Below, piece after piece: positions 9,101 to 39,814 of a stretch of DNA of 64,000 nucleotides. Made by a program: the position numbers and the translations under genes. The notes under the pieces are model-generated. The model made no database searches, was not told where the DNA came from, and worked only from the letters and a program-made list of their open reading frames with translations. Origin of the DNA: Amycolatopsis circi (GTDB lineage: Bacteria > Actinomycetota > Actinomycetes > Mycobacteriales > Pseudonocardiaceae); NCBI RefSeq assembly GCF_003385235.1, contig NZ_PQIA01000023.1:124001-188000 (forward strand). The letters run 5' to 3'. The stretch's first letter is position 1, and every line of letters starts with the position of its first letter.

Positions 9101-9104
<4 letters not shown>
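8052..9104 (-). CDS. ubiA: Decaprenyl-phosphate phosphoribosyltransferase (UbiA family, DPPR synthase)
   Basis: Integral membrane prenyltransferase that transfers 5-phosphoribose from PRPP to decaprenyl phosphate, the first committed step to the arabinose donor DPA. The UbiA aspartate motifs are visible: NDAVDVEADRAHPTKRNRP in the first half and YAVDVDGGNAGAPDE in the second. About nine hydrophobic helices follow a long acidic, Ala/Thr/Glu-rich N-terminal extension (residues 1-65) that the roughly 300-residue mycobacterial enzyme lacks. ATG 9104 overlaps the stop of the PAP2 gene (ATGA), so it is coupled to it, as in the mycobacterial Rv3807c-Rv3806c order. Confidence 0.93.
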
Positions 9105-10841
<1,737 letters not shown>

Positions 10842-13895: not shown

Positions 13896-13922
13896 TCGCT
13901 CGAACGGGCGGCGACCGGGAGA

Positions 13923-17204: not shown

Positions 17205-17371
17205 CCGTCCAGCCGACCCCTGGTGGACGGTTCCTCACCGCTTCCAGTCAAGCGCGCGGCCACGCTCCCCGGACATCAGCCGTTCGGGTGCATATGGGGT
17301 GCGGCTAGCCTAGTGCCCGATTCCCATCCGCCACGGGGAGACAGGCGGACGCCCAGGATTTGAGGAAGACT

Positions 17372-27029: not shown

Positions 27030-28043
27030 TCAGGCAGCGTCCACCGGAACGGGCCGTCGAGCGGCCAGCTTCGCGGCGAGCGCGGCGAAACCGGCCGTGA
27101 GCAGGTCCGCCACCGTGAACATCACCCGGGAGGCGATCGCGAACGCCGTCGCTTGGCCGACCGTCAGCCCGCTCGCCGTGAGGACCGCGACCTGGGCGAC
27201 CTCGCGAACGCCGACGCCGCTGGGGAGGATGAACGCGAAGGTGCCGACCGTCATCGCGACGGCCATCGCGCCCACGCACAAGATCAGGCCGCTGAACCCC
27301 GGGGCGCCGACCGAGTTCGCCAGCAGCCACAGGTGCACGCCCTGCAGCACCCAGGCTCCCATCGACGCGCCGAAGGTCTTGCACACCACGCCCCAGCCGA
27401 GCGGCTCGGCGAGCGGCGGACGGCGCAGGAGCTTCAGCACGAGCGACGTGCCCCAGGTCAGGATGCGCGGGTGCAGCAGCGCGAGCCCGACCGGGATCAG
27501 CACGAACAGCCACATCGCCCTCGGGCTGTTGCTGAACACCGCGGGCGCGGCCAGCAGCGACACGACCAGCGCAGAAACGACGCCCACGCCCAGCTGGATC
27601 AGAGAGCCGGTGAAGATCCGGGCCCTCGCCAAGCCTGCCTTGCGGCCCAGCTCCATCTGCAGCAGGTACGCCCACACCGAACCGGGCACGTACTTGCCGA
27701 GCGAGCCGACCAGGCAGATCTGCGCGCCGCGGGCGTAGCCGATCGGCTTGCCGAGGTGATCGACCAGGACCTGCCAGCCCCAGGTCGACACGAGGATCGA
27801 CACGATCAGCGCCACCAGGCTCAGCGCCGACGACTGCCAGGCGACGTCGGACAGCGTGTGCCAGAACTCGTCCCAGTTGGACGCCAGGCTCTTCGCCGCG
27901 AAGCCGATCACCAAGAGGATGGCGACCCACCGCACGACGTCGAGCACTCGCGCCTTGGTGGACTTGCGGGCTTTTCCGGTGGTCGCGGTGTCCTCAGTGG
28001 ACGGGGTGTCGTCCCCCGGCGTCTCCGTACGAACGGTCGTCAC
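27030..28043 (-). CDS. Flippase-like membrane protein (LPG synthase TM / AglD-type family)
   Basis: 337 residues, about eight hydrophobic helices after a polar Thr/Asp-rich N-terminus. The family pattern is visible: WGWQVLVDHLG, then GSLGKYVPGSVWAYLLQMELGR, and the late PSGVGVREVAQVAVL motif of the UPF0104/lysylphosphatidylglycerol-synthase membrane domain. Members without the soluble synthase domain are often linked with lipid or polyprenyl-sugar transport. It is the last gene of the seven-gene operon with LpxA-like, ACP, FabG-like, ligase, LuxE and LuxC proteins, so it may translocate their lipid product (inference). Confidence 0.8.
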   Translation of the reverse strand: MTTVRTETPGDDTPSTEDTATTGKARKSTKARVLDVVRWVAILLVIGFAAKSLASNWDEFWHTLSDVAWQSSALSLVALIVSILVSTWGWQVLVDHLGKPIGYARGAQICLVGSLGKYVPGSVWAYLLQMELGRKAGLARARIFTGSLIQLGVGVVSALVVSLLAAPAVFSNSPRAMWLFVLIPVGLALLHPRILTWGTSLVLKLLRRPPLAEPLGWGVVCKTFGASMGAWVLQGVHLWLLANSVGAPGFSGLILCVGAMAVAMTVGTFAFILPSGVGVREVAQVAVLTASGLTVGQATAFAIASRVMFTVADLLTAGFAALAAKLAARRPVPVDAA

Positions 28044-28057
28044 TGCCTCTCAGCTCC

Positions 28058-29302
28058 TCAGGCCTGTACCGTGACCAGGCGGCTGAACTCGGACAGCAGA
28101 TCGTAGCCGTCCCAGACCCCGGCGAACGTGAGGGCCGAGCCGAAGGGCACGACCCGGTCCACCCCGCGTCCGGCGAGCGCCGTCACGAATCCGGTCAGTT
28201 CCTCGCGGGTGAACCCGAACTGGCTCACCGTCTGGTCTTTGCGCTGCACGATCGGCACCAGCTCGTCCAGCGACGCCACCGAGGCGTTCGCGAACGTGCC
28301 CGCGCCCAGCCATTCGCGCGGCATCACCGTGGCGTCGGCCAGCTCGAGCGTCGCCAGCGCGTTGCCGTCGAAGCGGATCGACGACACGAGCCCGTCGACC
28401 GCCGCGCCGTACGCCGACACCCGCTTCTGCACGGCCATCGCCGGCTCGGTGACGTGCTGCTTCGCTGTCAGCACCTGGGCGAGCAGCTCGCGGAACTCAT
28501 GTCCGGCGGCTTGCGCGCCCGACGCGTCGCCGACCCAGAACACCGCGCGCGGCGACGAGCAGGCGGCCTGGTCGAACCAGTACGAGTCGTTGTAGAAGCC
28601 CTCGGCGGCAGCCTTGCGCTCCTCCGGGGCGGCCTCCTGCCAGCCGCGCACCGACGCGATCGCGAACGACGAGCGGTCCGGGAACGTGAGGTCGCGGGCG
28701 TGCGGGGCCAGCGGGTACTTCCGCAGCGCGGCCACCGAACTGTCGCCGCCCCAGATCACCCGCAGGTCCGCGGCCAGCGACAACGCGCCGCTGACCTCGT
28801 CGCTGCGGTCATAGGTGACCATGCGCTGGGTGGCCCGGATGGCGGCCGCGGTTTCCGGCGACACGTCTTCCATCGCCGCGTTCAGCGCCTCCAGCACCGC
28901 CTCGGCGGCGCCGGCCGAGCGCGAAGACACGCGCACGACGTTGCTGTTGCCCGCCAACGCGGACAGCGCCCAGGAGTACACGAAAATGGTGTCCACGTTG
29001 GCCGGCGGCACGTGGAAAACCAGGCCGCGCGGGAACCGCAGCGAATCGCCGCTGGTTTCCAAAGTGGACAGTGATTTCGCCAGTTCCCCCTTGCGCAGGA
29101 AGAAACCCAGCGACGCCAGCTCCGGGAAGCGCCGCGCCAGCGCGGGCGCGAGCAGCTTGCGCGCGAACTTGGTGACGAACTCGACCACCCGCGGGTCGCC
29201 GACTGTCAACCGGCCGCCGGACGGCTCCTCGCGCAGCTCGTCCAGCAACGCACCGGCCGAAACCGGGTCACCGAGCGGAAAACGCTGTTCCAAGGCACTC
29301 AC
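28058..29302 (-). CDS. LuxC-type acyl-CoA/acyl-protein reductase
   Basis: NADPH-dependent reductase that converts a fatty acyl group, received as a thioester from LuxE or CoA, into the aldehyde. 414 residues, shorter than Vibrio LuxC (about 480). The nucleotide-site block HVPPANVDTIFVYSW, LAGNSNVVRVSS and the catalytic cysteine C248 in FDQAACSSPR are all present. GTG 29302 overlaps the luxE-like stop by 4 nt; reading farther upstream only extends into the luxE-like gene in another frame. No luciferase genes are nearby, so the aldehyde must serve envelope or secondary metabolism. Confidence 0.88.
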   Translation of the reverse strand: MSALEQRFPLGDPVSAGALLDELREEPSGGRLTVGDPRVVEFVTKFARKLLAPALARRFPELASLGFFLRKGELAKSLSTLETSGDSLRFPRGLVFHVPPANVDTIFVYSWALSALAGNSNVVRVSSRSAGAAEAVLEALNAAMEDVSPETAAAIRATQRMVTYDRSDEVSGALSLAADLRVIWGGDSSVAALRKYPLAPHARDLTFPDRSSFAIASVRGWQEAAPEERKAAAEGFYNDSYWFDQAACSSPRAVFWVGDASGAQAAGHEFRELLAQVLTAKQHVTEPAMAVQKRVSAYGAAVDGLVSSIRFDGNALATLELADATVMPREWLGAGTFANASVASLDELVPIVQRKDQTVSQFGFTREELTGFVTALAGRGVDRVVPFGSALTFAGVWDGYDLLSEFSRLVTVQA

Positions 29303-30351
29303 GCGGCGGCTCCAGTGAACGTGTCCGAGCACCCGCGGGCCTCGGCCTTCGGCAGCCTGCCGAGCACGGAGAAGTGCTTGCCCGGCCAGTCGCCGTCGTC
29401 GATTCCGTTGCAGACGCCCAGATCTTCGGTGAGCAGCACGTGTCCCGGGTAGGACCGCGGCAGCGTGCTCACTACCTCGATGACGCCCGGCTTGCCGACC
29501 GGCTGCTCTTCCCAGGTCTCCGGGTCGCGGATCACGACGTCGGCGAAATCGGGGCAGTACAAGGAGTTCCCGGACGGACCCTCGAGGAACACGGTGCCGA
29601 TCTGCTCGATCATCCCGTAGTAGTTGTGGATTCGGGTGAGCCCGGTGTCCTCTTTGAACCGGCGGCGGAACTCGCTGTTGTCGACCGCGCGGTCGATCAG
29701 CTTCTTCCAGCCGCCGGAGTGGATGAGGATGCCGTTCGACAGGTCGAGCTTGTGCTCGCGGGCGACCTCGTACAGGTATTGCCACACCATGAAGGTGAAG
29801 CCGAAGATCAGGAACGGCCGGTCGCCGTACTCGGCGAGGAACTTCTTCACTGCCTCGACGTCCGGCTTGTCGTTCTCGTCCAGCACGTAGGTGTGCTTGC
29901 GGCCGAAGTTCGCCATGCCGAGCACCCCGGCGCCGCGCGCGGAGAACGACCGGCGGTTCTTGATGATGCCGATGGTGTCGACCATCAGCATCGGCAGCCG
30001 CTCGCCGCCCAGCACCTCCTGCAGGGTGGCGCCGAGCTGCTTGGTCTGCGCGCCCGCCGCCTCCTTGTCCAGGTAGATCCGCGACGCGCCGGCCCCGGTG
30101 GTGCCCGAGGACGTGAGGGTTTTGAAGACCTCCGCGTCCGGAATGGACTTCAGGTCGTGCGTTTTGAACATGCGCACCGGTAGCCACGGCAGGTCGGCGA
30201 TCGTGCCGAACGACGCGTCCGGCGCGAAACCGAGCGAGGCCAGGATGCGCTCGTACCCGGCGGAGTTCGCCCGGTGGTGCGCGGTCAGCTCCGCCAGCTC
30301 AGGGAGCAGCGCCGCCTCTCGCTCCGCCTGCGAGCGCGTGAACACACTCAT
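29299..30351 (-). CDS. LuxE-type acyl-protein synthetase
   Basis: 350-residue ANL-superfamily enzyme that activates a fatty acid with ATP and holds it on a cysteine before passing it to LuxC. The nucleotide loop is LTSSGTTGAGAS (79-90). YYGMIEQIGTVFLEG matches the conserved adenylate region. Cys341, the tenth residue from the C-terminus in RGCSDTFTG, corresponds to the mobile C-terminal cysteine that carries the acyl group in Photobacterium LuxE. Overlaps with both neighbours (ATGA, GTGA) show tight coupling to the AMP-ligase and LuxC genes. Confidence 0.88.
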   Translation of the reverse strand: MSVFTRSQAEREAALLPELAELTAHHRANSAGYERILASLGFAPDASFGTIADLPWLPVRMFKTHDLKSIPDAEVFKTLTSSGTTGAGASRIYLDKEAAGAQTKQLGATLQEVLGGERLPMLMVDTIGIIKNRRSFSARGAGVLGMANFGRKHTYVLDENDKPDVEAVKKFLAEYGDRPFLIFGFTFMVWQYLYEVAREHKLDLSNGILIHSGGWKKLIDRAVDNSEFRRRFKEDTGLTRIHNYYGMIEQIGTVFLEGPSGNSLYCPDFADVVIRDPETWEEQPVGKPGVIEVVSTLPRSYPGHVLLTEDLGVCNGIDDGDWPGKHFSVLGRLPKAEARGCSDTFTGAAA

Positions 30352-31757
30352 ACCCGTCCTTCCAGCGACCGGTAGTCGATCTTCCCGCTGGCCAGCAGCG
30401 GCACTGTGTCGATCGGACGCACGTCGAACCCGCTGGCGTGCAGGTGCAGCCGCTCCGCCAGCGCCCGCGCCGCGTCCTTGCAGATCGCCTTCGCGCCGTC
30501 GCCCTCGGGCAACTCGGCGAACAGCACGACCTTGTCGCCTGCAGGCACCGCGGCCACCACGTCGATGCCCACCGCGGCCGTGCGCACGGCCTGCTCCAGG
30601 TCGTCCAGGCTGACCCGGTTGCCGAACACCTTGCCGATCCGCTTCAGCCTGCCGGTGATGTACAGGTACCCCTCGTCGTCGAGGTACCCGAGATCCCCGG
30701 TGGCCAGCATTCCGGCGTATTCGTCGCCCGCGGCCAGCCCTGCTTCGTCCTCGGCATAACCCATCATCACGTTGGGTCCACGGTAAAGGACCTCACCGAC
30801 AATTTTGGGATGCGTCGTTTCCTCGCCGTCGTCACGGCGGATGGCGAACGCGCCGCCGGGCAGCGCCGGACCGGCCGAGCCGATCTTGTCCGCGAGCCGC
30901 TCGGCGGGCACCGTCGTCATGCGCGGGGACGCCTCGGTCTGGCCGTACATGACGTACATCCGGCCGCCGACCGCGAGCATCTTGTCGTTGAACTCGGCGA
31001 CCAGTTCGTCCCGCAGTTTTCCCCCCGCCTGGGTGAGGGTCCGCAGGGTCGGGTACTTCGCCGGGTCGAACTTCAGCCGGCGCAGCATTTCGTAGTGATA
31101 GGGCACCCCGGACAGCGAGGTCACGCCGTGTTCCTTCACCGCGTCCCAGAATCCGCGACCAAGCACGCCAGAGGTTTCGATAACCACGGTCGCGCCGCGC
31201 AGAAGATGCGAATTCAGCACCGAAAGGCCGTAGCTGTAGTGCAGCGGCAGACAGGTGGGCGCGACCTCGTCCGCGTCGATCGCCAGCACCTGCGCGATGG
31301 CGTCGGCGTTGGCCAGCAGGCCCTGCCGGGACAGCCGGACGAGCTTCGGGTTGCCGGTGGAACCGCTGGTGGGGAGCAGAACGGCGAGGTCGGGATGCGG
31401 GACGGTGCCGTCGGCCGCCTCGCGCACCCAGTGCCCGTCTTCGGCCCGGTAGCCCTCCGGCGCGTCCGCTTCAGGCGCGGCCAGCACGGCGGCCGGCCGG
31501 AAACGGGTGATCAGGCCTTCGAGCACCTCCGCGTCCAGCGCCGGGTCGATCAGCGCGATCGCCCGTCCCGCTTCGAACGCGCCGAGATACCGCAGCACGC
31601 TGTCGAGGTCCAGCGACATCCGCGCGAACAGCACGCCGGGCGGGAGGTCCGCCAGCGCGGCCGCGGACCGCTTGACCTCCGCCGCGAGCTCGTCGCCCGC
31701 CAGCGTGCGGCCCCCGGCCACGTCGACCAGCCGGGACCCTTCGCCAACCAGATTCAC
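30348..31757 (-). CDS. AMP-dependent acyl ligase
   Basis: 469-residue ANL enzyme that adenylates a carboxylic acid for transfer to CoA or, given the next-door carrier protein, to ACP. Motifs: LLPTSGSTGNPKLV (P-loop-like), MYGQTEASPRM, GDLGYLDDEGYLYITGR, KVFGNRVSLDD and the C-terminal lysine in LASGKIDYRSL. It is shorter than typical acyl-CoA synthetases at the N-terminus. It overlaps luxE by 4 nt and lies 56 bp after the FabG-like gene. Loading fatty acid onto the operon ACP is the favoured role (inference). Confidence 0.86.
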   Translation of the reverse strand: MNLVGEGSRLVDVAGGRTLAGDELAAEVKRSAAALADLPPGVLFARMSLDLDSVLRYLGAFEAGRAIALIDPALDAEVLEGLITRFRPAAVLAAPEADAPEGYRAEDGHWVREAADGTVPHPDLAVLLPTSGSTGNPKLVRLSRQGLLANADAIAQVLAIDADEVAPTCLPLHYSYGLSVLNSHLLRGATVVIETSGVLGRGFWDAVKEHGVTSLSGVPYHYEMLRRLKFDPAKYPTLRTLTQAGGKLRDELVAEFNDKMLAVGGRMYVMYGQTEASPRMTTVPAERLADKIGSAGPALPGGAFAIRRDDGEETTHPKIVGEVLYRGPNVMMGYAEDEAGLAAGDEYAGMLATGDLGYLDDEGYLYITGRLKRIGKVFGNRVSLDDLEQAVRTAAVGIDVVAAVPAGDKVVLFAELPEGDGAKAICKDAARALAERLHLHASGFDVRPIDTVPLLASGKIDYRSLEGRV

Positions 31758-31813
31758 CGAACCTCCTCGTCGTGCTCGTGTGCGTTCACACCGGCTCTAC
31801 CCGGCATGAACAC

Positions 31814-32545
31814 TCACAACACCAAGCCGCCGTCGATGCCGAGGATCTGACCGGTCACGAAGGCCGCCTCGTCGCTCGCCAGGAAGCGGATCGCCTTCGC
31901 GACCTCCTCCGGCTTGCCGAGCCTGCCCAGCGCCGTGTCCTCGATGCGCTCGGCGATGACCTTTTCGCCGAGGTGGGAGGTCATGTCGGTCTCGATCACG
32001 CCGGGCGCGACCGCGTTGACCCGGATGTTGTGCCTGCCCAGTTCCTTGGCCGCGGACCGGGCGATGTTGCCGACGGCGGCCTTGGACGCGGCGTATGCGG
32101 TCTGTCCCGCACTGCCGTTCTCGCCGACGATCGAAGCCAGCAGGACGATCGCGCCGGACTTGCGCCTGCTCATCACGCGCGACGCGGCCTGCACGGTGTT
32201 GATCGTGCCGCCGACGTTCGTCTTGAACATGCGGTCGACCAGGTCTTCGCTGATCATGCCGAGCAGCGCGTCCTCGAGGACACCGGCGTTGGCGACGACG
32301 ATGTCGAGCGCGCCGTGCTCCTTCGCGACGCCGCGCACCAGCGACGAGACCGCCTTCGCGTCGGTGACGTCGAGTGCGAGACCGGCCGCGGCCCCCGCGT
32401 CAGCGGCGACTTCCTTCGCCCGGTCTTCGTCCCGCCCGGTCAGCACGACGGTGGCGCCCGCTTCGACGAGCGCGCGCACGGTGGCCAGCCCGATGCCGCG
32501 CGTCCCGCCCGTGACGAGCGCGACGCGTCCGGTCAGATCAGTCAT
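31814..32545 (-). CDS. FabG-like 3-oxoacyl reductase (SDR)
   Basis: 243-residue SDR. TGGTRGIGLATV cofactor loop, NAGV, serine in LLASIVGENG, YAASKAAVGN catalytic Tyr/Lys and the C-terminal TGQILGIDGGLVL identical in style to FabG. Probably reduces a 3-oxoacyl group bound to the ACP encoded immediately upstream, whose stop it overlaps by 8 nt. This would give a 3-hydroxyacyl-ACP, the type of acyl donor LpxA enzymes use. The substrate assignment is inference from linkage. Confidence 0.87.
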   Translation of the reverse strand: MTDLTGRVALVTGGTRGIGLATVRALVEAGATVVLTGRDEDRAKEVAADAGAAAGLALDVTDAKAVSSLVRGVAKEHGALDIVVANAGVLEDALLGMISEDLVDRMFKTNVGGTINTVQAASRVMSRRKSGAIVLLASIVGENGSAGQTAYAASKAAVGNIARSAAKELGRHNIRVNAVAPGVIETDMTSHLGEKVIAERIEDTALGRLGKPEEVAKAIRFLASDEAAFVTGQILGIDGGLVL

Positions 32546-32810
32546 TCTTCGACACGAGGCCGGCGACCATGTCCACGGCGACCTTGAAGCTCGACATGTC
32601 GATCACCTGGTCGGTGTCGAATTCGATGTCGAAGTCGTCCTCGATCGCGGCGACGAGCGCCATGTGGCCGACCGAGTCCCAAGCGTCGATGTCGCGGTAC
32701 TTGAGGTTCTCGACGTCCACGTCCCCGTCGAGGTCCAGCGCCTCGACGAAGACCTCGCGCAGCTTGGGGGCGACTTCTGGCGTCGCGGCCTGAGCGTCAG
32801 ACACAGTCAT
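32538..32810 (-). CDS. Acyl carrier protein
   Basis: 90-residue acidic carrier protein. The phosphopantetheine serine is S46 in AWDSVGHMALV; note DSV rather than the DSL of fatty-acid ACP, common in dedicated carrier proteins. Helix 1 (PKLREVFVEAL) and helix 3 (SSFKVAVDMVAGLV) are clear. It lies 13 nt after the LpxA-like gene and overlaps the FabG-like gene, so it is the shared acyl carrier of this operon rather than the housekeeping ACP. Confidence 0.92.
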   Translation of the reverse strand: MTVSDAQAATPEVAPKLREVFVEALDLDGDVDVENLKYRDIDAWDSVGHMALVAAIEDDFDIEFDTDQVIDMSSFKVAVDMVAGLVSKND

Positions 32811-32823
32811 CGTTCCTTCGTCT

Positions 32824-33555
32824 TCAATGTTCGTCGCGCGGACGTGCGTCCCACGCCCTCACCAAGGTAGAGAGGTCTTCGGGCAGGCCGTCGTCCGGGA
32901 GGTCGCCTTTGCCCTTGACCCACGGACCGAGTGCCTCTACGGCGGCCTCGTCGAGGCCGCGGCGCGACAGGCCCACCGTATTGACGCCGGTGACCCGGGC
33001 GGGGTTGCCGACCGTGATGGTGAACGCACCCACCTCGCGGCGGACCGCCGAACCCATCCCGACCATCGCGCCGGGGCCGATGCTGCCGCCCTGGTGCACG
33101 ACCGTGCCCATGCCGAGGTTGGCGAACGGCCAGACGTGCGTGTGACCGCCCAGCATGACGTTGCAGGCGAGCGTGACCTGGTCGTCGACCAGCACGTCGT
33201 GCCCGATGTGGCTGCCGCGCAGCACGTAGCAGTCGTCGCCGAGTGTCGTGGCGCGCCAGGTGCCCTGCTGGATGCTGGTGTACTCCCGGATCCGGTTGCG
33301 GCTGCCGATGACGACGCCGTGGCCGTCCTCCGCCGGGTCTCCGGTCGGTGCGCCCTCCCAGGCGACCGGGTGCGGACCGCCCCGGTCCTCGCCCGGAGTG
33401 CCGATGGTCACGTGCGGGCCGATCCAGTTGCCGTCGCCGACGCGGGTCGGGCCCACGATGACCGCATAGGGGCCGATGATGTTGCCTTCGCCCAGCTCCA
33501 CGCCCTCGCCGAGGACTGCCGTGGGGTGGATCCGGTTGGGTGCCGCAGGTGACAC
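32824..33555 (-). CDS. LpxA-type UDP-sugar acyltransferase
   Basis: 243-residue left-handed beta-helix acyltransferase with the full E. coli LpxA plan: IHPTAVLGEGVELGEG, GSRNRIREYTSI, SHIGHDV, LACNVMLGGH and the terminal GVNTVGLSRRGLDEAAV, which parallels LpxA GVNIEGLKRRG. H116 and H119 align with LpxA H122 and catalytic H125. An insertion near 53-80 (rich in Gly/Pro/Asp) and a shorter C-terminal helical part differ. LpxA moves a hydroxyacyl chain from ACP to UDP-GlcNAc; an ACP gene follows directly. Start GTG 33555 precedes the first conserved strand; the upstream reading frame has no homology. Acceptor is likely an amino-sugar nucleotide made by the divergent genes. Confidence 0.85.
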   Translation of the reverse strand: MSPAAPNRIHPTAVLGEGVELGEGNIIGPYAVIVGPTRVGDGNWIGPHVTIGTPGEDRGGPHPVAWEGAPTGDPAEDGHGVVIGSRNRIREYTSIQQGTWRATTLGDDCYVLRGSHIGHDVLVDDQVTLACNVMLGGHTHVWPFANLGMGTVVHQGGSIGPGAMVGMGSAVRREVGAFTITVGNPARVTGVNTVGLSRRGLDEAAVEALGPWVKGKGDLPDDGLPEDLSTLVRAWDARPRDEH

Positions 33556-33746
33556 AGTCGGTGATCCGTTTCGTCGCTTCCGGCCTGGACGGCCTGGGGT
33601 CAAGGGCTGGCTGCGGCGCCCGGTAACGTGTGGCCCGCGTGCATGCAGGGCGGCCGGGCGCAGAACCGGCGGCTTTCCGGCCTCGCGGCCGGAGCGCCTA
33701 GCACTGTACCGGACGCATCGATTTCCCCAGCCGAGAGAGACTGCCG

Positions 33747-34853
33747 ATGATCCCCATTACCGTGGTCGACGTCCGAGACGCGGAGGACCTGGTCGTCGAG
33801 GTGCTGCGATCCGGCGCCATCGCACAGGGGCCGATGGTCAAGCGCTTCGAGGACGCGTTCGCGCACGTCGCGGGCACGAAGCACGCCATCGCCGTGAACA
33901 ACGGGACGACCGCGCTCGTCGCGTCGCTGCAGGCGTTGGACCTTCAGCCCGGGGACGAGGTGGTGACCTCGCCGTTCACCTTCGTCGCGACGCTGAACGC
34001 GATCCTGGAGGCCGGCGCGACCGTGCGGTTCGCCGACATCCGGCGCGACGACTTCGCGATCGACTCGGACGCCGTCGCCGCCGCGGTCACCGATCGCACC
34101 AAGGTGCTGATGCCGGTGCACCTGTACGGCCAGACCGCGGACATGGGCAAGCTCGCGCCGCTCGCTGCCGAGCACGGGCTGCAGGTCATCGAGGACTCCG
34201 CGCAGGCCGTCGGGGCGTCGTTCGAGGGCAAGCAGGCCGGGTCGTACGGCATCGGCTGCTTCTCGCTGTACGCGACGAAGAACGTGACCACCGCCGAGGG
34301 CGGCGTGATCACCACGGACGACGACGCGCTGGCCGACAAGCTGCGCGTGATGCGCAACCAGGGCATGAAGGCCCGCTACCAGTACGAGATGGCCGGGCAC
34401 AACTACCGGATGACGGACCTGCACGCCGCCGTCGGCATCCCGCAGCTGGAGAAGCTCGACCAGCTCACCGCGGCCCGCCAGGCCAACGCGAAGCGGCTGT
34501 CCGAGGGTCTCGCCGGCACGCCGGGCATCGAGGCGCCGCAGGTGCTGCCCGGCCGCGAGCACGTGTGGCACCAGTACACCGTGCTGGTCGGCCCGCACGC
34601 GATGCTCTCGCGCGACGAGCTCGCCGCCGCGTTGACCGAAAAGGGCATCGGCAACGGGATCTACTACCCGAAGATCGTCTTCGACTACGACTGCTACCGC
34701 GGGCACCCGCTGATCCCGGACGCCCGGGTCGAAGACTTCCCGGCGGCCGCCGCTGTCGCCGCGCAGGCGCTTTCGCTGCCGGTGCACCCGCGGCTGACCG
34801 AGTCCGAGCTTGACCAGATCATCGAGGCCGTTCGCGAGGTACTGGGCGCATGA
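33747..34853 (+). CDS. DegT/DnrJ/EryC1 sugar aminotransferase (GnnB/WbpE-like)
   Basis: 368-residue PLP aminotransferase acting on keto-sugar nucleotides. NNGTTALVASLQAL binds phosphate, PVHLYGQTADM and VIEDSAQAVGA are family motifs, and the PLP lysine is K178 in SLYATKNVTTAEGG. The C-terminal GIYYPKIV and LSLPVHPRLTE are typical. ATG 33747 has GAGAGA upstream. It overlaps the Gfo/Idh gene by 4 nt and is divergent, across 191 bp, from the LpxA-like operon. The oxidoreductase-aminotransferase pair suggests replacement of a sugar hydroxyl, probably C3, by an amine; the exact position is inferred. Confidence 0.88.
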   Translation: MIPITVVDVRDAEDLVVEVLRSGAIAQGPMVKRFEDAFAHVAGTKHAIAVNNGTTALVASLQALDLQPGDEVVTSPFTFVATLNAILEAGATVRFADIRRDDFAIDSDAVAAAVTDRTKVLMPVHLYGQTADMGKLAPLAAEHGLQVIEDSAQAVGASFEGKQAGSYGIGCFSLYATKNVTTAEGGVITTDDDALADKLRVMRNQGMKARYQYEMAGHNYRMTDLHAAVGIPQLEKLDQLTAARQANAKRLSEGLAGTPGIEAPQVLPGREHVWHQYTVLVGPHAMLSRDELAAALTEKGIGNGIYYPKIVFDYDCYRGHPLIPDARVEDFPAAAAVAAQALSLPVHPRLTESELDQIIEAVREVLGA

Positions 34854-35803
34854 CACACCGCATCGCACTCGTCGGCACCGGCAACATGGGCTCGCTGCAC
34901 GCGCGGGTCCTCTCGCAGAACGACCGGGTGGACCTGGCCCGTGTGATCGACCCGCGCGAGGAAGCCGGCCGCGCGGTCGCCGACCGCTACGAAACCCAGT
35001 GGACGCCCGAAATCGGCTCGCTGTCCGATGTGGACGCGGTGGTGCTCGCTTCGGCCACCGAGGTGCATTACGAGCTGGCACAGGAGATTCTCGGCCAGGG
35101 CAAGCCGCTGCTGGTCGAGAAGCCGGTGTGCAACAGCCTCGAGTTCTCGCAGGAAATCGTTGCCCTGTCGGCGAAGAAGGACGTCCCGCTGATGTGCGGG
35201 CTCCTGGAGCGCTACAACCCGGCCGTGATGACCGCGCGGGCTCTGGTGAACGAACCGGTGCACCTGATGGCGCGCCGGCACGGCCCGTACGCGCCGCGGA
35301 TCAAGACCGGCGTCGCGTGGGACCTGCTGGTGCACGACGTCGACCTCGCGATCCAGTTCTTCGGCGGCGCCACGCCGGGCCGGGTCACCTCCAGCGCGGG
35401 CTACTTCCACCCGCAGTCGGTCACCGGGGCCGAGGACACCATCGAAACGGTGCTCTCGTTCCCCAGCGGGCTGGCCACGGTTTCGGCTTCGCGGCTGGCA
35501 CAGCGCAAGGTCCGGTCGCTCATGGTGTCCGAACTGGACCGCATGGTGGAGGTCGACCTGCTGCGCCGCGACGTGACGATCTACCGGCACGTCTCGCACG
35601 ATTCGGTCACCCCGGACGGCCTCGGCTACCGGCAGCAGACCGTCATAGAGATTCCGGAACTGGTCACCGCGCGCGAACCACTGGCGACTCAGCTGGACCG
35701 GTTCGTCGATCTGCTCGAGGGCAAGGTCGACGCGGAGGTCGAGCGGGCGCTGATCCTGCCGTCGCACGAGGTCGTGGCGCAGGTGCTGGCCGAGGCCGCC
35801 TGA
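34850..35803 (+). CDS. Gfo/Idh/MocA oxidoreductase (GnnA/WbpB-like)
   Basis: 317-residue NAD(P) sugar dehydrogenase. Rossmann motif VGTGNMGSLHARVL at the N-terminus, the EKPV motif with catalytic lysine (LLVEKPVCNSLEF), and WDLLVHDVDLAIQFFGG with the H-D pair are present. ATG 34850 overlaps the aminotransferase stop, so the proteins are coupled; it likely makes the keto-sugar nucleotide the aminotransferase uses. It ends directly against the convergent membrane-regulator gene with no spacer. Confidence 0.88.
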   Translation: MTHRIALVGTGNMGSLHARVLSQNDRVDLARVIDPREEAGRAVADRYETQWTPEIGSLSDVDAVVLASATEVHYELAQEILGQGKPLLVEKPVCNSLEFSQEIVALSAKKDVPLMCGLLERYNPAVMTARALVNEPVHLMARRHGPYAPRIKTGVAWDLLVHDVDLAIQFFGGATPGRVTSSAGYFHPQSVTGAEDTIETVLSFPSGLATVSASRLAQRKVRSLMVSELDRMVEVDLLRRDVTIYRHVSHDSVTPDGLGYRQQTVIEIPELVTAREPLATQLDRFVDLLEGKVDAEVERALILPSHEVVAQVLAEAA

Positions 35804-36538
35804 TTACTTGGTGAGGCGTTTGCCGTCCGCGGAGTAGGCGACCAAGGGGGTCGCCCTCTCGGCGGACGGCACGTCGTCCTGGTCGAACCAGAACACGACC
35901 ACCTCGGGGTCCTCGCTCCAGCGCGCCGTGTGCGCCGGGATCGTGCGACCGTCCACTGTGGTCTCGATGCGGGCGGCCGGACCGCTGAAATAGCCGTACA
36001 CCGGCACCCAGATGTCGGAGACGGTCGTGCCGCCTGACGTGGCGTGGAAGCCGAAAGAGCGGTCCTTGCCGTCGGATTCGTTGGCGAGGTAGAGCGGACG
36101 CAGGTTTCCGTCCGGCTCGTACAGGCTGGCCATCACTCCGAATTGGACAGCCGGCAGGTTCTCCGCGTCATCGATTTCCGTCGCGTAGAAGACAAGTTCC
36201 GCGCCGTCGGTGTAGGTGCCGGTGGAGATCACCTCGCCGAGCGGCCGCTCGGCCGACGTCGGAGCCGGGACCGGGGTCGACGAGGCCACGCTCGTCACCA
36301 TTGGCGCTGGCGACGCCGCCGCATGCACCTGCTCCGGAGCACCGCCCGGCGAACGCAACCAAGCCGCACCGAACACCACCGCGACCACCGCCACCGCCGC
36401 GCCCGAGGACGTCAGAAACCGCCGCCGACGCCGAATCCGGCCGCCTTCTTTGATGATCCGGTCGAGATCGGGTTCAGCGAAGGGTTCCGCGGGCGCTTCC
36501 TGAAGCGCGGCACGCAACCGGTCGAGTTCGTCGGTCAC
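35804..36538 (-). CDS. Membrane-anchored putative regulator partner of a SigE-family sigma factor
   Basis: 244 residues: a cytosolic N-terminus of about 40 (MTDELDRLRAAL..., with a basic RIRRRRRF stop-transfer), one helix (SSGAAVAVVAVVFGAAWL), a Ser/Thr/Pro linker, and an exterior beta-rich domain (about 95-244) ending SADGKRLTK. No zinc-binding HCC anti-sigma motif is seen, so calling it an anti-sigma factor would rest on linkage alone. GTG 36538 overlaps the sigma gene stop by 4 nt. This short-cytosolic-tail pairing is common for SigE-family sigma genes in actinomycetes. Confidence 0.7.
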   Translation of the reverse strand: MTDELDRLRAALQEAPAEPFAEPDLDRIIKEGGRIRRRRRFLTSSGAAVAVVAVVFGAAWLRSPGGAPEQVHAAASPAPMVTSVASSTPVPAPTSAERPLGEVISTGTYTDGAELVFYATEIDDAENLPAVQFGVMASLYEPDGNLRPLYLANESDGKDRSFGFHATSGGTTVSDIWVPVYGYFSGPAARIETTVDGRTIPAHTARWSEDPEVVVFWFDQDDVPSAERATPLVAYSADGKRLTK

Positions 36539-37035
36539 GCGGTCACCTCCCCGACCAGAGCGTCACCGTCGACGCGCAGTTTCGCCAGCGCACGCGAATT
36601 GGTGCTCTTGACCGTGCCGACGGACACGCCCAGTTCCTCGGCCACCTGGTGTTCCGGCAAATCGAAGAAATGCCGGAGAACCACTACGGCGCGTTCGCGG
36701 GCGGTGAGCCGGGTCAACGCGTCGGAAAGCCATTCCCGATCGGTGACGGCGTGCGAGATGTCGGGCACCTTCGCCGGTTCCGGCATTTCCTCGGTGGCGT
36801 ATTCGCGAATCGGCCGGCGCCAGATGTCGATGACATGATTGGCGAGCACGCGGCGGGCGTAGGCGTACGGATTCTTGCGCCGCACCCTCGGCCATGCGGC
36901 ATAGGTGCGGGTGAAGGCGGTCTGCGCGGCATCCTCGGCCTGATGACGGTCGCCGGTGAGCAGGAAAGCCGCGTGGGTGAGCCGGGCAGAACAGGACCGC
37001 ACGAAGTCGGCGAACTCGTCGTCCCCGCGCACCAT
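36535..37035 (-). CDS. SigE-family RNA polymerase sigma factor (ECF type)
   Basis: 166 residues with region 2 (about 5-75: FLLTGDRHQAEDAAQTAFTR, then NPYAYARRVLANHVID) and region 4 (about 105-160: LTARERAVVVLRHFFDLPEHQ, then VSVGTVKSTNSRAL). It matches the actinomycete SigE-like ECF group, which travels with a membrane protein gene coded directly downstream as here. No target promoter can be assigned. The start GTG lacks a clear ribosome-binding site. Confidence 0.9.
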   Translation of the reverse strand: MVRGDDEFADFVRSCSARLTHAAFLLTGDRHQAEDAAQTAFTRTYAAWPRVRRKNPYAYARRVLANHVIDIWRRPIREYATEEMPEPAKVPDISHAVTDREWLSDALTRLTARERAVVVLRHFFDLPEHQVAEELGVSVGTVKSTNSRALAKLRVDGDALVGEVTA

Positions 37036-37156
37036 CCCACCCCTGTTCCCGGTTGCCTTGCTGTCCAGGTTACGGGGGCGGGGGACGTGCGTCGATGTAA
37101 TGGCTGGTCAGTCTCGTCTCAACGGCGACGCATGGTGTTCGGGGAGGTGCTTGGCG

Positions 37157-37387
37157 TCAGCGTTGGGCTCGCGGGTCGAGCTTCACCGGCGGATCCACAA
37201 TCCAGTAACGCTCAATCCCGGCATCGGCATACACGGCTTCCGTGACCTCAGCCGAGGTCACGACGACGTCCGGGACGCGGATCGTCAGCGGGGTCTCGCC
37301 CAGGAGCAACTCCGCCTCGGCACCGACGACTTCGACCCGGACCCCCGGTTCCTCCGGAAATCCCGCCCAAACCTCAAGAGCCAGCAA
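37157..37387 (-). pseudogene. Decayed Uma2-family gene fragment
   Basis: A 76-codon open remnant of the neighbouring Uma2 gene. It keeps ETPLTIRVPDVVVTSAEV, YADAGIERYWIVD and PVKLDPRAQR. It has lost about 30 residues containing the catalytic ELVIEVLSPGTK block, the later SMIAYRL...EIAGA strand region and LNALI. Bases 37235-37325 are almost identical to 37691-37781 of the intact gene (a handful of differences), so the duplication is recent or has been converted. The frame stays open across the deletions but a functional nuclease fold is unlikely. This remnant fills most of the 366-bp gap between the sigma gene and the intact Uma2 gene. Confidence 0.75.
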
Positions 37388-37402
37388 AGTGCGATACGAG
37401 AG

Positions 37403-37999
37403 TCAGCGTTGGGCGCGCGGATCGATCAACGCGTTCAGGTCGAGCTTCACCGGCGCACCCGCGATCTCCAGCTCGACGCTGCCGGAATACTCGCCGAAAT
37501 TCTCGTAATCGCCGCCGATGAGCCGGTACGCGATCATGCTGACCGGCGGATCCACATCCACAATCCAGTAATGCTCGATACCCGCATCGGCATACTCGAA
37601 AAGCTTCGCACCCTGGTCGACGTGCTTCGTGCCCGGGGAAAGCACCTCGATCACCAGCTCGGCGTCGGCCGCCTCGATGCGCGCCGGGTTGGCTTCCGCG
37701 ACCTCAGCCGAGGTCACGACGACGTCCGGGACGCGGATCGTCAGCGGGGTCTCGCACAGGAGCAGCTCCGCCTCGGCACCGGCGCTCATCTCCGGGCAGA
37801 GTTGCTCGTCGAGAAGGAACGCCAACCGCGTCACTGACCGCAGGTGGAACCACATCGGACGCGGCGACGGGACAAGAACCCCGGCAACGACCTCAGTTCG
37901 TCCCTCTGGCAGAGCTGCCCAGCCGTCTCGGGTCAGCAGATACTGCCGAGGCTGATTTCCTCTGTGGCCAGAGACCGGTTCACTTCCCGCTGAAGTCAC
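37403..37999 (-). CDS. Uma2-family PD-(D/E)xK nuclease-like protein
   Basis: 198 residues of the Uma2 (DUF820) family, a restriction-endonuclease fold abundant in actinomycetes and cyanobacteria, of unsettled function. RVPDVVVT supplies the active-site Asp, AELVIEVLSPGT the Glu, and the lysine is in the following TKHVDQGAK helix region; YADAGIEHYWIVDVDPP is the hallmark. GTG 37999 lies inside the 3' end of the O-acetyltransferase gene (20-nt overlap), with no later good start before conserved sequence. A decayed copy follows immediately downstream. Confidence 0.85.
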   Translation of the reverse strand: MTSAGSEPVSGHRGNQPRQYLLTRDGWAALPEGRTEVVAGVLVPSPRPMWFHLRSVTRLAFLLDEQLCPEMSAGAEAELLLCETPLTIRVPDVVVTSAEVAEANPARIEAADAELVIEVLSPGTKHVDQGAKLFEYADAGIEHYWIVDVDPPVSMIAYRLIGGDYENFGEYSGSVELEIAGAPVKLDLNALIDPRAQR

Positions 38000-38597
38000 C
38001 TGACGGGGAACCCCAGCCGGACGAGTCGTCCGACAACTCGCGGCGGCGGGCGTTTTCCTCGCGGACCCGCTTCACCTCCGCCTCGATGTACTCCTCGTCG
38101 TAGCGCTGGAACACTCGCGCCGGGTTGCCCGCGACCAGCGAGCGCGCCGGGACGTCCTTCGCGACCACCGAGTTCGGCTGCACCGTCGCGAAGTCACCGA
38201 TCGTGACTCCCGGCATGATCACCACTAGGCCGCCGATGAAGCAGCCCTTGCCGATTTTCACCGGCTTGCGTTCGATCAAATCGCTGCCGGAATGGTTTTC
38301 CAGCGCCATGTTCGCGAGCCAACTCGAATGCGTGAACACCAGCGTGTTCAGCCCGATGCTGGTGTGCTCGCCGATTTCCAGCCCGCCGCTGGCGTCGAGG
38401 GTCGCGCCCTCGCCGACCCAGCAGTGCTCGCCCATGGTGAGGTTGTCCGGGCTGACGATCTTGACGCGTTCGCGCACCCGGCACGACTCCGGCAAGCCGT
38501 AGAAAGCGGCTCGCTCGGCGTCGTTCAGGTACTGCGAAACCACATCGGTAAGGATCATCGGGCGCAACCGGTTGCTGCGCTCGTCGTCGAAGAACAT
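37980..38597 (-). CDS. Hexapeptide-repeat O-acetyltransferase
   Basis: 205-residue left-handed beta-helix acetyltransferase of the LacA/NodL/maltose acetyltransferase group. It has hexapeptide turns (LTMGEHCWVGEGATL, LEIGEHTSIGLNT), the acceptor-site histidine in VFTHSSWL, the IGKGCFIGGLVVIMPGVTIGDFATV coil and the terminal SLVAGNPARVFQRYDEEY. It probably acetylates a sugar hydroxyl of a surface glycan. ATG 38597 overlaps the stop of the glycosyltransferase gene (ATGA). The C-terminal tail is charged and coiled-coil-like. Confidence 0.85.
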   Translation of the reverse strand: MFFDDERSNRLRPMILTDVVSQYLNDAERAAFYGLPESCRVRERVKIVSPDNLTMGEHCWVGEGATLDASGGLEIGEHTSIGLNTLVFTHSSWLANMALENHSGSDLIERKPVKIGKGCFIGGLVVIMPGVTIGDFATVQPNSVVAKDVPARSLVAGNPARVFQRYDEEYIEAEVKRVREENARRRELSDDSSGWGSPSGDFSGK

Positions 38598-39814
38598 CAG
38601 TTGTCCGCCACCAGTTTCGTGAGCACCCGCAGGTGTTCTTCGGCCACTACGTCCAGTCCGAAGTTGTCCCGGACCATCGACGCTTCCCGCTCGGCGATCC
38701 GCGCGCGTTCCTTCGGGTCGTCCAAAAGGGACAGCACAGTGGTCTTGACCGCTTCGGAATCGTTCGGCCGCACCAGCAGGATGTTCTCGCCGTTGTGCAG
38801 TTCGATGCCGGGGTAGTTGTCCTCGGTGACCGACGCGATCGTCGCGGTGCCGGACAGCATCGCCTCCAGCGACGCGGTGCCGCAGCCGCCGTTGAGGTCG
38901 TGCGTGACGATGTCCGCGGCAGCGAAGTACGCCGGCACGTCCGCCTTCGGCACCGCGCCGGTGACGATCAGCGCGTCCGCCACACCCAGTTCCTCGGCCC
39001 GGCGCTGGAACGCGTCGTGGTACACCCGGCCGACGATCACCACGCGCAGCCCGGGGTGCTTCTCCAGGATCGCCGGCAGCGCCTCGATCAGCGGCAGCCG
39101 GTTGCGCAGCGGGATCACGTGCCCGAGCGACACGATCAGCGGCGCGTCCCCGATTTCCAGTTCCGCCCGCACGTCCTTGGTCACCGGCTTGGCGAAGTGC
39201 CCGGTGTCCACCGCGATCGGGAAGTACTCGGAGTTGTCGTCGCTCGTGCCGTAGCGCTCGACGCAGTAGTCCACGCCGAGCTTGTCGAGGATGACGTAGC
39301 GCGGCCGGAGGTATTTGAGCACCGGCTTGACCAGCATCGCGTCCAGTGCCCGGAAGACCCGGCCGTACATCTTGTTCTCGCTGATCAGCAGCGTGTGGAT
39401 GGTCAGCAGAACGGGCAGCTTGTGCCGGCGCGCGTAGATGCCGACCATCCAGGACAGGTCGAAGAACTGTCCGTGCAGGTGCACCGCGTCCGGTTTGAAC
39501 TCGTTCAGCAGCTTCCACAGCCGCCGCCAGTTGCCCGGCCGCATCGACGCGAACGTCATGTCGAAGTCGATCGACAGGCCGAGCTGCGGCATCTTCACCG
39601 CGGGCAGGCGCACGACGCGGTAGCCGTCGCGCTCCTCTTCCGCCGGCGCGTCACCGTAGGCAGCGGTGATCGCCAGCACTTCGTTCCCGGCGGCCGCGTA
39701 CTCGGCGGCCAAGGAGGCCGACATGTGCGCGCTTCCGCCCACTCGCGGCGGGAAGAAGTTGTTCACCACCACGATTCGCATGGGCTTTCCTTCGGCCGGG
39801 CCCGCAGTGCTCAT
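38597..39814 (-). CDS. GT4-family glycosyltransferase
   Basis: 405-residue GT-B retaining glycosyltransferase. N-terminal VVNNFFPPRVGGSAH and VHLHGQFFDLSWMVG are GT4 acceptor-domain features; donor-domain signals are LIVSLGHVIPLRNR, VGRVYHDAF and the EX7E motif region in ASLEAMLSGTATIASV. Donor and acceptor are unknown. Two starts have good ribosome-binding sites: ATG 39814 (GAGGAAG) and ATG 39781 (GAAGGAAAG, beginning MRIVVVNN). The gene lies between an epimerase and an O-acetyltransferase, in an apparent surface-glycan operon running from 41938 to 37980. Confidence 0.88.
   Translation of the reverse strand: MSTAGPAEGKPMRIVVVNNFFPPRVGGSAHMSASLAAEYAAAGNEVLAITAAYGDAPAEEERDGYRVVRLPAVKMPQLGLSIDFDMTFASMRPGNWRRLWKLLNEFKPDAVHLHGQFFDLSWMVGIYARRHKLPVLLTIHTLLISENKMYGRVFRALDAMLVKPVLKYLRPRYVILDKLGVDYCVERYGTSDDNSEYFPIAVDTGHFAKPVTKDVRAELEIGDAPLIVSLGHVIPLRNRLPLIEALPAILEKHPGLRVVIVGRVYHDAFQRRAEELGVADALIVTGAVPKADVPAYFAAADIVTHDLNGGCGTASLEAMLSGTATIASVTEDNYPGIELHNGENILLVRPNDSEAVKTTVLSLLDDPKERARIAEREASMVRDNFGLDVVAEEHLRVLTKLVADN

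What the first reader, a model, noticed from the sequence alone, without database searches (positions are those of the whole stretch)
27030..35803. GnnA/GnnB/LpxA-like amino-sugar acylation cluster in an actinomycete
Seen: divergent genes for a Gfo/Idh oxidoreductase and DegT aminotransferase (coupled, ATGA) face an operon starting with an LpxA-type beta-helix acyltransferase (H116/H119 where LpxA has H122/H125, plus the LpxA-like GVNTVGLSRRG end) and its own ACP. Known: in Acidithiobacillus and Leptospira, GnnA (Gfo/Idh), GnnB (aminotransferase) and LpxA make UDP-GlcNAc3N and N-acylate it from ACP for lipid A. Inference: this organism, which has no lipid A, makes an N-acylated 3-amino-sugar nucleotide as head of an unknown glycolipid or wall decoration, exported by the flippase-like last gene. 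Such a combination is, to my knowledge, not described for Gram-positive bacteria.
Basis: partly seen in the sequence, partly recalled or inferred. Interest (0 to 1): 0.85.

Follow-up and report, generated by a model that had tools for sequence, protein, structure and literature searches.

The report
Amino-sugar acylation cluster in an actinomycete
A set of neighbouring genes in a soil bacterium looks built to put an unusual small acid group on an amino sugar, probably for the cell wall, using a five-gene module that other bacteria carry beside surface-sugar genes.

Summary
Observation confirmed: at 27030-35803 lie a divergent DegT aminotransferase (H) + Gfo/Idh oxidoreductase (I) pair and a seven-gene operon: LpxA-like acyltransferase (G), ACP (F), FabG-like SDR (E), AMP ligase (D), LuxE-like (C), LuxC-like (B), flippase-like (A). 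Interpretation partly supported. G is closer to LpxA than to WbpD/QdtC and keeps LpxA's catalytic residues, but misses both LpxA cut-offs, falls beside rather than inside the LpxA clade and lacks LpxA's substrate loop; the genome has no LpxC match. I is GnnA-like; H could not be tested against GnnB. The reason given does not name LuxE/LuxC. The run ACP-SDR-ligase-LuxE-LuxC is a portable cassette with a printed counterpart (same gene kinds, same order) in Aeromonas flagellin-glycosylation islands; its LuxE is nearer that of rfbKLMN-like (tetronate-type) fusions than bioluminescence LuxE. In 59 of 74 family genomes holding G (>=55%) it lies just downstream; 15 lack it. Best reading: I+H make a 3-amino sugar nucleotide (probably UDP-GlcNAc3N), the cassette builds a short hydroxyacyl-ACP, G N-acylates the sugar, and it decorates a wall polymer, perhaps arabinogalactan. 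A lipid head group is less likely. New variant of a known kind. Aside: an lpxA-lpxD-lpxC run in a few related genomes.

The parts
32824..33555 (-). G: LpxA-like left-handed beta-helix acyltransferase, 243 aa; catalytic H119, also H116/H138/H154/Q155/N192/R198
   Evidence: Hexapep PF00132, PF13720 25.5 bits (33 of 82 positions); NCBIfam LpxA 161.8 bits below cut-off 226; PDB LpxA 6.7e-34 and 8e62 1.7e-30; residue map
32538..32810 (-). F: dedicated acyl carrier protein, Ser in WDSVGH
   Evidence: NCBIfam ACP 28.4 bits (below cut-off); Ser kept in 84 of 84 filtered rows
31814..32545 (-). E: FabG-like SDR, proposed to reduce the aldehyde (or a 3-oxoacyl group)
   Evidence: TIGR01830 237.2 bits (cut-off 297.75); Tyr/Lys 96 of 96 filtered rows
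30348..31757 (-). D: AMP-forming acyl ligase, proposed to load F
   Evidence: PF00501 154.6 bits
29299..30351 (-). C: LuxE-like acyl-protein synthetase
   Evidence: PF04443 153.7 bits; C-terminal Cys 103 of 103 filtered rows
28058..29302 (-). B: LuxC-like acyl reductase (GTG start overlapping the LuxE stop)
   Evidence: PF05893 102.1 bits; start; Cys 99 of 99 filtered rows
27030..28043 (-). A: flippase-like membrane protein
   Evidence: PF03706 LPG_synthase_TM 62.7 bits
33747..34853 (+). H: DegT sugar aminotransferase, proposed to aminate the 3-keto sugar nucleotide
   Evidence: PF01041 394 bits; best NCBIfam PseC 299.6 (cut-off 423.5); PDB perosamine synthase, ArnB, WbpE; Lys 69 of 69 filtered rows
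34850..35803 (+). I: Gfo/Idh oxidoreductase, GnnA-like
   Evidence: UDP-GlcNAc 3-dehydrogenase NF040723 142.3 bits (cut-off 450); PDB 7bvj 2.3e-22; EKP 63 of 63 filtered rows
38597..39814 (-). N: GT4 glycosyltransferase, candidate user of the sugar; a >=40% relative lies in 25 of 39 named G loci
   Evidence: PF00534
37980..38609 (-). M: hexapeptide acetyltransferase (reading frame end; start not settled)
   Evidence: PF00132
39852..40781 (-). O: NAD-dependent sugar epimerase/dehydratase; >=60% relative in 10 of 39 named G loci (stretches often end before it)
   Evidence: PF01370
40808..41950 (-). P: second DegT aminotransferase (start not settled)
   Evidence: PF01041 343.6 bits
17360..19294 (+). 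DUF6541 polytopic membrane protein; a relative often lies 3' of A in other species
   Evidence: PF20176 376 bits; DUF6541 in 27 of 39 named G loci

Best explanation
I oxidises C3 of a UDP-sugar (probably UDP-GlcNAc) and H aminates it. In the operon, LuxE (C) adenylates one carboxylate of a small dicarboxylic acid and hands it to LuxC (B), which reduces it to an aldehyde; the SDR (E) reduces that to an alcohol; the ligase (D) loads the other carboxylate on the ACP (F). G moves the resulting short hydroxyacyl group (for instance a 2,4-dihydroxybutanoyl, C4H6O3) from ACP to the new amine. A glycosyltransferase puts the sugar on a lipid carrier, A helps it across the membrane, and it ends on a wall polymer, perhaps in or beside arabinogalactan. 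Shown: gene content, order, conserved catalytic residues, coupling of G with the cassette and with H/I/A, neighbourhood. Inferred: every reaction, the acid, the sugar, the carrier, the final polymer.
For: G and cassette: 59 of 74 genomes with G >=55% have LuxE just downstream on the same strand; of 70 LuxE genomes, 59 are these (genomes are related, so Fisher p 1.7e-36 overstates). Order F-E-D-C-B in 86 of 103 loci with LuxE; in 10 no ACP was detected, in 6 neither ACP nor SDR, in 1 no SDR (some contigs are short and the ACP is small). Within G, R172 is R in 32 of 32 cassette-linked rows against 1 of 5 close rows without cassette and 0 of 9 rows of the 42-50% class; K216 in 29 of 32 against 0 of 5 (a gap in the 9), fitting a basic ACP dock. 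G's chain-length position is M167 (E. coli G173; P. aeruginosa M), which recalled LpxA work links to shorter chains. LuxE bits against window C: 19 chosen cassette loci 258-499; fused LuxE:LuxC beside ACP, ligase and Fe-ADH in three Vibrionaceae 177-181; 27 loci of the bioluminescence class 32-79; three other Vibrionaceae LuxE-like genes 75, 55 and no hit. The cassette lies beside PseB/PseC or PseI in two Micromonosporaceae loci; of the 41 named cassette loci without G, 27 have a DegT relative within 10 kb and 5 a strong PglD-like match. V. cholerae tetronate genes: passages of PMC3441752 and PMC12208996. An unidentified 102 Da moiety in the flagellin glycan of A. piscicola AH-3, a Group II strain with the five genes (passages of PMC7874193), equals C4H6O3 102.03.
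Against: 15 of 74 genomes keep G >=55% with no LuxE match at E<=1e-40, and such members nest inside the cassette-linked clade in two places, so G can work without the cassette or has been retuned. Three named loci have H+I and cassette without adjacent G (L109, L126, L131). E56, which also separates the 32 from the 5 rows, is E in 9 of 9 of the unlinked 42-50% class and in 8e62, so it is no ACP mark; M167 is shared by cassette-free rows and 8e62 too. The SDR is not the Fe-ADH of the tetronate set, and LuxE/LuxC are not fused. The residue contrast rests on 5 rows, about two events. Most of the 41 cassette loci without G (30) showed no LbH transferase at E 1e-4, so the transferase partner varies or is unseen. 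In the Ponticoccus plasmid no glycan gene is annotated nearby and LuxC is on the other strand. The 102 Da match is numerical only; other formulae fit, and the passages seen report no deletion of a cassette gene. Sugar and polymer are untested.
Confidence: 0.45

Rival explanations
1. G is an acetyl-CoA N-acetyltransferase making a diacetamido sugar; the cassette feeds another step (for example another transferase in the same glycan locus).
For: G without cassette in 15 of 74 genomes, and in 14 of 37 G loci read at about 20 kb, with H retained in 10 of those 14; acetylated 2,3-diamino sugars are known in Streptomyces walls (passages); 8e62, second best profile match, shares the M at the ruler position.
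Against: Downstream linkage of the cassette to G in 59 genomes; R172 and K216 differ in cassette-free rows.
Confidence: 0.22
2. One reading: a long-chain acyl group is placed on UDP-GlcNAc3N as head of a glycolipid exported by A.
For: LpxA-like fold family and catalytic set, G clade sister to LpxA, own ACP, GnnA-like I.
Against: LuxE/LuxC are not needed for it; M167 ruler; no LpxC, LpxA cut-offs missed; LuxE nearer tetronate-type than bioluminescence type.
Confidence: 0.12
3. The SDR is a true 3-oxoacyl-ACP reductase and the cassette makes a 3-hydroxybutanoyl-ACP, with LuxE/LuxC acting in supply or proofreading.
For: E's best NCBIfam model is FabG (237.2 bits, below cut-off); 3-hydroxybutanoyl amino sugars are known (recalled).
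Against: Does not explain LuxE and LuxC, whose Cys are kept in 103 of 103 and 99 of 99 filtered rows.
Confidence: 0.14
4. LuxE/LuxC make a free aldehyde or alcohol (luminescence-like or a secondary metabolite).
For: Pfam names; a luciferase-like monooxygenase match lies at 12978-14519; the Ponticoccus locus shows no annotated glycan gene.
Against: 54.7 bits against the LuxE cut-off 550 and 46.1 against 750 for LuxC; the luciferase-like frame is about 12.5 kb away; surface-sugar genes stand beside the cassette in the Deinococcus and Micromonosporaceae loci read.
Confidence: 0.05

Closest known systems
ACP / 3-oxoacyl-ACP reductase / AMP synthetase / luxE / luxC set of Aeromonas Group II and enterobacterial flagellin glycosylation islands (PMC7874193, PMC4875605; passages seen)
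   Same: The same five gene kinds, listed in the same order for Aeromonas; also beside amino-sugar genes
   Different: There beside pseudaminate genes, and the passages seen name no LpxA-like transferase; no biochemistry of the set in the passages seen; its sequences were not compared here directly
Vibrio cholerae O1 tetronate genes rfbKLMNO (PMC3441752, PMC12208996; passages seen; roles of RfbK, M, N, O recalled)
   Same: ACP, AMP ligase, dehydrogenase, LuxE and LuxC; acyl group on an amino sugar of a surface glycan
   Different: Fe-ADH in place of SDR, LuxE:LuxC fused (seen in the Vibrionaceae look-alikes L196-L198; Fe-ADH and fusion checked by Pfam in L196), LuxE 32-34% identical; V. cholerae's own sequence was not fetched
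GnnA/GnnB/LpxA of Acidithiobacillus and Leptospira (recalled; GnnA/GnnB passage PMC8036547)
   Same: 3-dehydrogenase-like + aminotransferase + LpxA-like transferase + ACP
   Different: No LpxC in the genome; G not an LpxA by cut-off or tree; extra LuxE/LuxC cassette; one coil shorter than E. coli LpxA and no QDLKY loop
WbpB/WbpE/WbpD pathway (PMC10622841 passages) and Streptomyces teichuronic polymers with GlcNAc3NAcA/ManNAc3NAcA (PMC13274773 passages)
   Same: 3-amination and 3-N-acylation of a UDP-GlcNAc-type sugar for a surface polymer
   Different: Acetyl group, uronic acid, WbpD-type transferase; G is not WbpD-like

Membership tests
LpxA | Curated score cut-offs (NF003657 226; TIGR01852 231) | tested here: not met
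   161.8 and 151.0 bits
LpxA | Catalytic and ligand residues H122, H125, H144, H160, Q161, N198, R204 (roles recalled) | tested here: met
   Window H116, H119, H138, H154, Q155, N192, R198; each in 32 of 32 cassette-linked rows
LpxA | QDLKY substrate loop | tested here: not met
   Window has GEDRGG: the D is kept (D57), E. coli K76 aligns with G59
LpxA | Groups inside LpxA in a tree | tested here: not met
   LpxA clade (1.00) is sister (0.95) to the G clade (0.90); 43 rows, FastTree, three reference LpxA of which two partial
LpxA | Genome makes lipid A (LpxC present) | tested here: not met
   No PF03331 match in the own genome
LpxA | C-terminal helical domain (PF13720) | tested here: inconclusive
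   25.5 bits (cut-off 24.5) over 33 of 82 positions
GnnA | UDP-GlcNAc 3-dehydrogenase sequence family | tested here: inconclusive
   NF040723 142.3 of 450 needed, but best model; best PDB match 7bvj
GnnB | Groups with GnnB | not tested
   No GnnB sequence was in hand; H resembles PseC, ArnB and perosamine synthases generally
WbpD/QdtC/NeuD N-acetyltransferases | Closer to these than to LpxA | tested here: not met
   18 PDB sequences at E<=1e-20: 17 with LpxA-type labels and 8e62, none WbpD/QdtC/NeuD
Flagellin-island LuxE/LuxC cassette | Five kinds of gene in the order ACP, reductase, ligase, LuxE, LuxC | tested here: met
Tetronate (rfbKLMN) set | Fe-ADH and fused LuxE:LuxC | tested here: not met
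   SDR and separate genes
Tetronate (rfbKLMN) set | Product 3-deoxytetronyl on an amino sugar | not testable with these tools
   Needs chemistry
Bioluminescence luxCDE | LuxE and LuxC equivalog cut-offs (550, 750) | tested here: not met
   54.7 and 46.1 bits; a Vibrionaceae LuxE as control scores 707.5

The most novel reading that the evidence does not exclude
Amycolatopsis and kin decorate arabinogalactan or a companion wall polymer with a 3-amino sugar carrying a dihydroxybutanoyl-type group built by a LuxE/LuxC hydroxyacyl-ACP cassette, and this cassette is a general surface-glycan acylation module across at least six phylum-level groups that also explains the unidentified 102 Da moiety of Aeromonas flagellin.
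Probability: 0.22. Interest if true: 0.78.

Novelty: new variant of a known kind. Interest (0 to 1): 0.55.

Why it matters
If true, wall glycans of a major antibiotic-producing family carry an undescribed acylated amino sugar, and an uncharacterised gene cassette seen in many bacteria gets a testable chemical role. Surface glycans with acylated amino sugars serve as toxin and phage receptors (umbrella-toxin receptor in Streptomyces, PMC13274773 passages; O1 antigen and phage ICP1, PMC3441752 passages).

Tried and rejected
Considered and rejected: bioluminescence-type function (scores); G as WbpD/QdtC-type; G as LpxA proper. A tree of LuxE was built but its display failed on three row names and was not repeated; only its BLAST table is used. 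Paper searches: ten used. The rows listed (titles and abstract starts; one search listed 10 of 23) showed no paper on this cluster or on a LuxE/LuxC cassette in actinomycetes; the library holds open-licence papers only, so this is weak evidence of absence. What PDB 8e62 does was not found.

Row choices: the 99 G places were split at 55% identity; the 42-48% class (21 places; 0 adjacent to the cassette, 6 in genomes that hold it) and the 4 places at <=40% are outside the 74. The neighbourhoods in the family are 40 stretches of at most 19.9 kb chosen by me for spread from the 98 G genomes; their counts are no random sample, and 3 of the 40 held no G at >=41%. One search printed only loci without G. 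Residue counts use rows that passed identity and length filters. Rows with an internal stop (3 of 113) were left out of the alignment. One search compares 32 with 5 rows after removing near-duplicates; 9 rows of the 42-50% class and 3 LpxA-like rows are shown apart. One search used 19 cassette loci picked by me.

I lowered the probability of the novel case from 0.25 to 0.22 for this.
Full report
What is there. On the plus strand H (33747-34853, DegT aminotransferase) and I (34850-35803, Gfo/Idh oxidoreductase) overlap as ATGA. Facing them, 191 bp away, a tight minus-strand operon (gaps -8 to +56 bp) encodes G (LpxA-like acyltransferase), F (ACP), E (FabG-like SDR), D (AMP ligase), C (LuxE-like), B (LuxC-like, start at 29302) and A (flippase-like, PF03706). 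The closest named relatives of the block are Amycolatopsis (L111 A. nivea and L122 A. orientalis: the nine proteins 93-98% identical), so the window is very probably Amycolatopsis.

G against LpxA. G's best NCBIfam model is LpxA, but below both cut-offs (161.8/226, 151/231). A profile of 19 G sequences finds 18 PDB sequences at E<=1e-20: 17 with LpxA-type labels and 8e62, a 189-aa chain named UDP-N-acetylglucosamine acyltransferase; no WbpD, QdtC or NeuD chain. The residues aligned with E. coli H122, H125, H144, H160, Q161, N198 and R204 are kept in 32 of 32 cassette-linked rows. The QDLKY loop is absent and one coil is missing against E. coli LpxA. In a 43-row tree the LpxA clade (1.00) is sister (0.95) to the G clade (0.90), with the 42-48% class and 8e62 further out. 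So G is LpxA's near kin but not LpxA. The LpxA-like tail is shared with 8e62, so it does not prove lipid chemistry. The own genome has one PF13720 match, G itself, and no LpxC match.

The pair H and I. I's best PDB match is 7bvj (2.3e-22 over residues 4-287; recalled as A. ferrooxidans GnnA) and its best NCBIfam model UDP-GlcNAc 3-dehydrogenase, 142.3 of 450 bits. H is a sugar aminotransferase nearest PseC, perosamine synthase and ArnB types; GnnB was not available for comparison.

The cassette. F-E-D-C-B are found in this order in 86 of 103 loci with LuxE (23 family stretches and 80 named loci); in 10 no ACP was detected, in 6 neither ACP nor SDR, in 1 no SDR (some loci are short contigs). 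Plasmid records added Deinococcus, Ponticoccus, Rhizobium and Nonomuraea (14 of 72,556 records matched). In Deinococcus the cassette follows sugar transferases and precedes a PglD-like transferase. In a Rhizobium plasmid an LbH transferase, ACP, ligase, LuxE and LuxC lie together. In Ponticoccus LuxC is on the other strand and no glycan gene is annotated nearby. In two Micromonosporaceae loci it sits beside PseB (over cut-off) and PseC (407 of 423.5) (L101) and PseI (over cut-off) (L142). Of the 41 named loci without G, 27 have a DegT relative within 10 kb, 5 a strong PglD-like match, 11 any LbH match at E 1e-4. The same five gene kinds in the same order are described for Aeromonas Group II islands, and similar sets for Enterobacteriaceae (passages of PMC7874193 and PMC4875605).

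What the cassette may make. Two adenylating enzymes plus a LuxC suggest that two carboxylates are handled: one reduced, one loaded on ACP. That is the logic proposed for V. cholerae tetronate (passages; detailed gene roles recalled). Among 247 Vibrionaceae genomes, 40 have LuxE; three of these carry ACP, ligase, Fe-ADH-like and an 825-827 aa LuxE:LuxC fusion in a row (domains confirmed in one of the three). The window's LuxE scores 177-181 bits against these fusions and 32-79 against the 27 bioluminescence-class loci, one of which was confirmed by NCBIfam at 707.5 bits. An unknown 102 Da moiety is reported in the flagellin glycan of A. piscicola AH-3, a Group II strain; C4H6O3 is 102.03. The 376.14 Da pseudaminate derivative also equals Pse5Ac7Ac with one acetyl exchanged for C4H6O3 (376.148), but the paper's introduction speaks of a pseudaminate derivative also in single-sugar strains, so this is weak.

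Linkage of G and the cassette. Of 297 family genomes, 98 hold a G relative at E<=1e-20 (99 places) and 70 hold LuxE at E<=1e-40. Of 74 genomes with G at >=55%, 59 have LuxE 1.6-4.7 kb downstream on the same strand and 15 have none. Of 21 places in the 42-48% class none is adjacent; 6 lie in genomes with a cassette elsewhere. Five LuxE genomes have no G. Outside the family G is rare: 4 of the 395 other genomes of a phylum sample at E<=1e-20, one of them above 50% identity. Comparing 32 cassette-linked with 5 cassette-free close relatives, E56, R172 and K216 differ most clearly; of these E56 is E in the unlinked 42-50% class as well, so only R172 and K216 fit loss of an ACP dock, and they rest on about two events. 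The cassette-free members nest inside the linked clade, so dependence is not absolute.

Where the product goes. The window's left part has UDP-galactopyranose mutase (9612-10835), a UbiA prenyltransferase (8052-9104), DprE1/DprE2-like genes and two DUF6541 membrane proteins; the DPPR-synthase, DprE and AftB readings are recalled, and the AftB-like protein (15660-17204) had no Pfam match. In 30 of 39 named G loci a relative of Glf, UbiA, DprE1 or the AftB-like protein lies in the same stretch, against 1 of 41 loci without G; but 25 of the 30 have the AftB-like gene and only 7 have Glf, UbiA or DprE1. In the family stretches the figures are 17 of 37, with 9 having Glf, UbiA or DprE1. These are related species, and the stretches are short. 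A wall polymer is a fair guess, arabinogalactan a weaker one.

Verdict. Real, conserved, and mostly as described; the interpretation needs the LuxE/LuxC cassette, which changes the likely acyl group from lipid-like to short and hydroxylated. New variant of a known kind.

Noticed in passing
L050:8096-10628 (-) in G114; L049:7562-10255 (-) in G009: An lpxA-lpxD-lpxC run in actinomycetes of the same family. In L050 LpxA scores 234.6 bits (NF003657 cut-off 226; TIGR01852 219.7, below 231) and LpxD 307.5 (cut-off 242.5), with LpxC directly following; L049 reads alike (LpxC, LpxD by eye). G027 has LpxC about 1.1 kb from its LpxA-like gene. LpxC is found in 6 of 297 family genomes, one of them in two pieces; G158 has LpxA (230.7 bits) without LpxC. 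LpxB was not looked for, contamination not excluded, no paper search made. It may be more surprising than the finding itself.
   Followed up: partly
window 12978-14519 (-): Reading frame with a luciferase-like monooxygenase match (PF00296 145.7 bits), about 12.5 kb from the LuxE/LuxC operon; no sign that it belongs to the block.
   Followed up: partly
L101, L142 (Micromonospora, Salinispora): The LuxE/LuxC cassette beside PseB/PseC/PseI-type pseudaminate genes in Gram-positive actinomycetes.
   Followed up: partly
window 10916-12937 and 17360-19294 (+): Two DUF6541 membrane proteins of unknown function; four matches in the genome. One often lies 3' of A in relatives; possible GT-C-type transferases (inference).
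   Followed up: no
L103 (record titled Rhodococcus rhodnii NRRL B-16535): Carries a Kibdelosporangium-like copy of the block with nearly the same layout as L104 (Kibdelosporangium aridum); perhaps a mislabelled or contaminated record.
   Followed up: no
window 35804-37999 (-): A sigma-factor-like gene with its neighbour (35804-37035) and a Uma2-like gene (37403-37999), all read by eye, sit between the block and the second sugar-gene set; their conservation was not examined.
   Followed up: no
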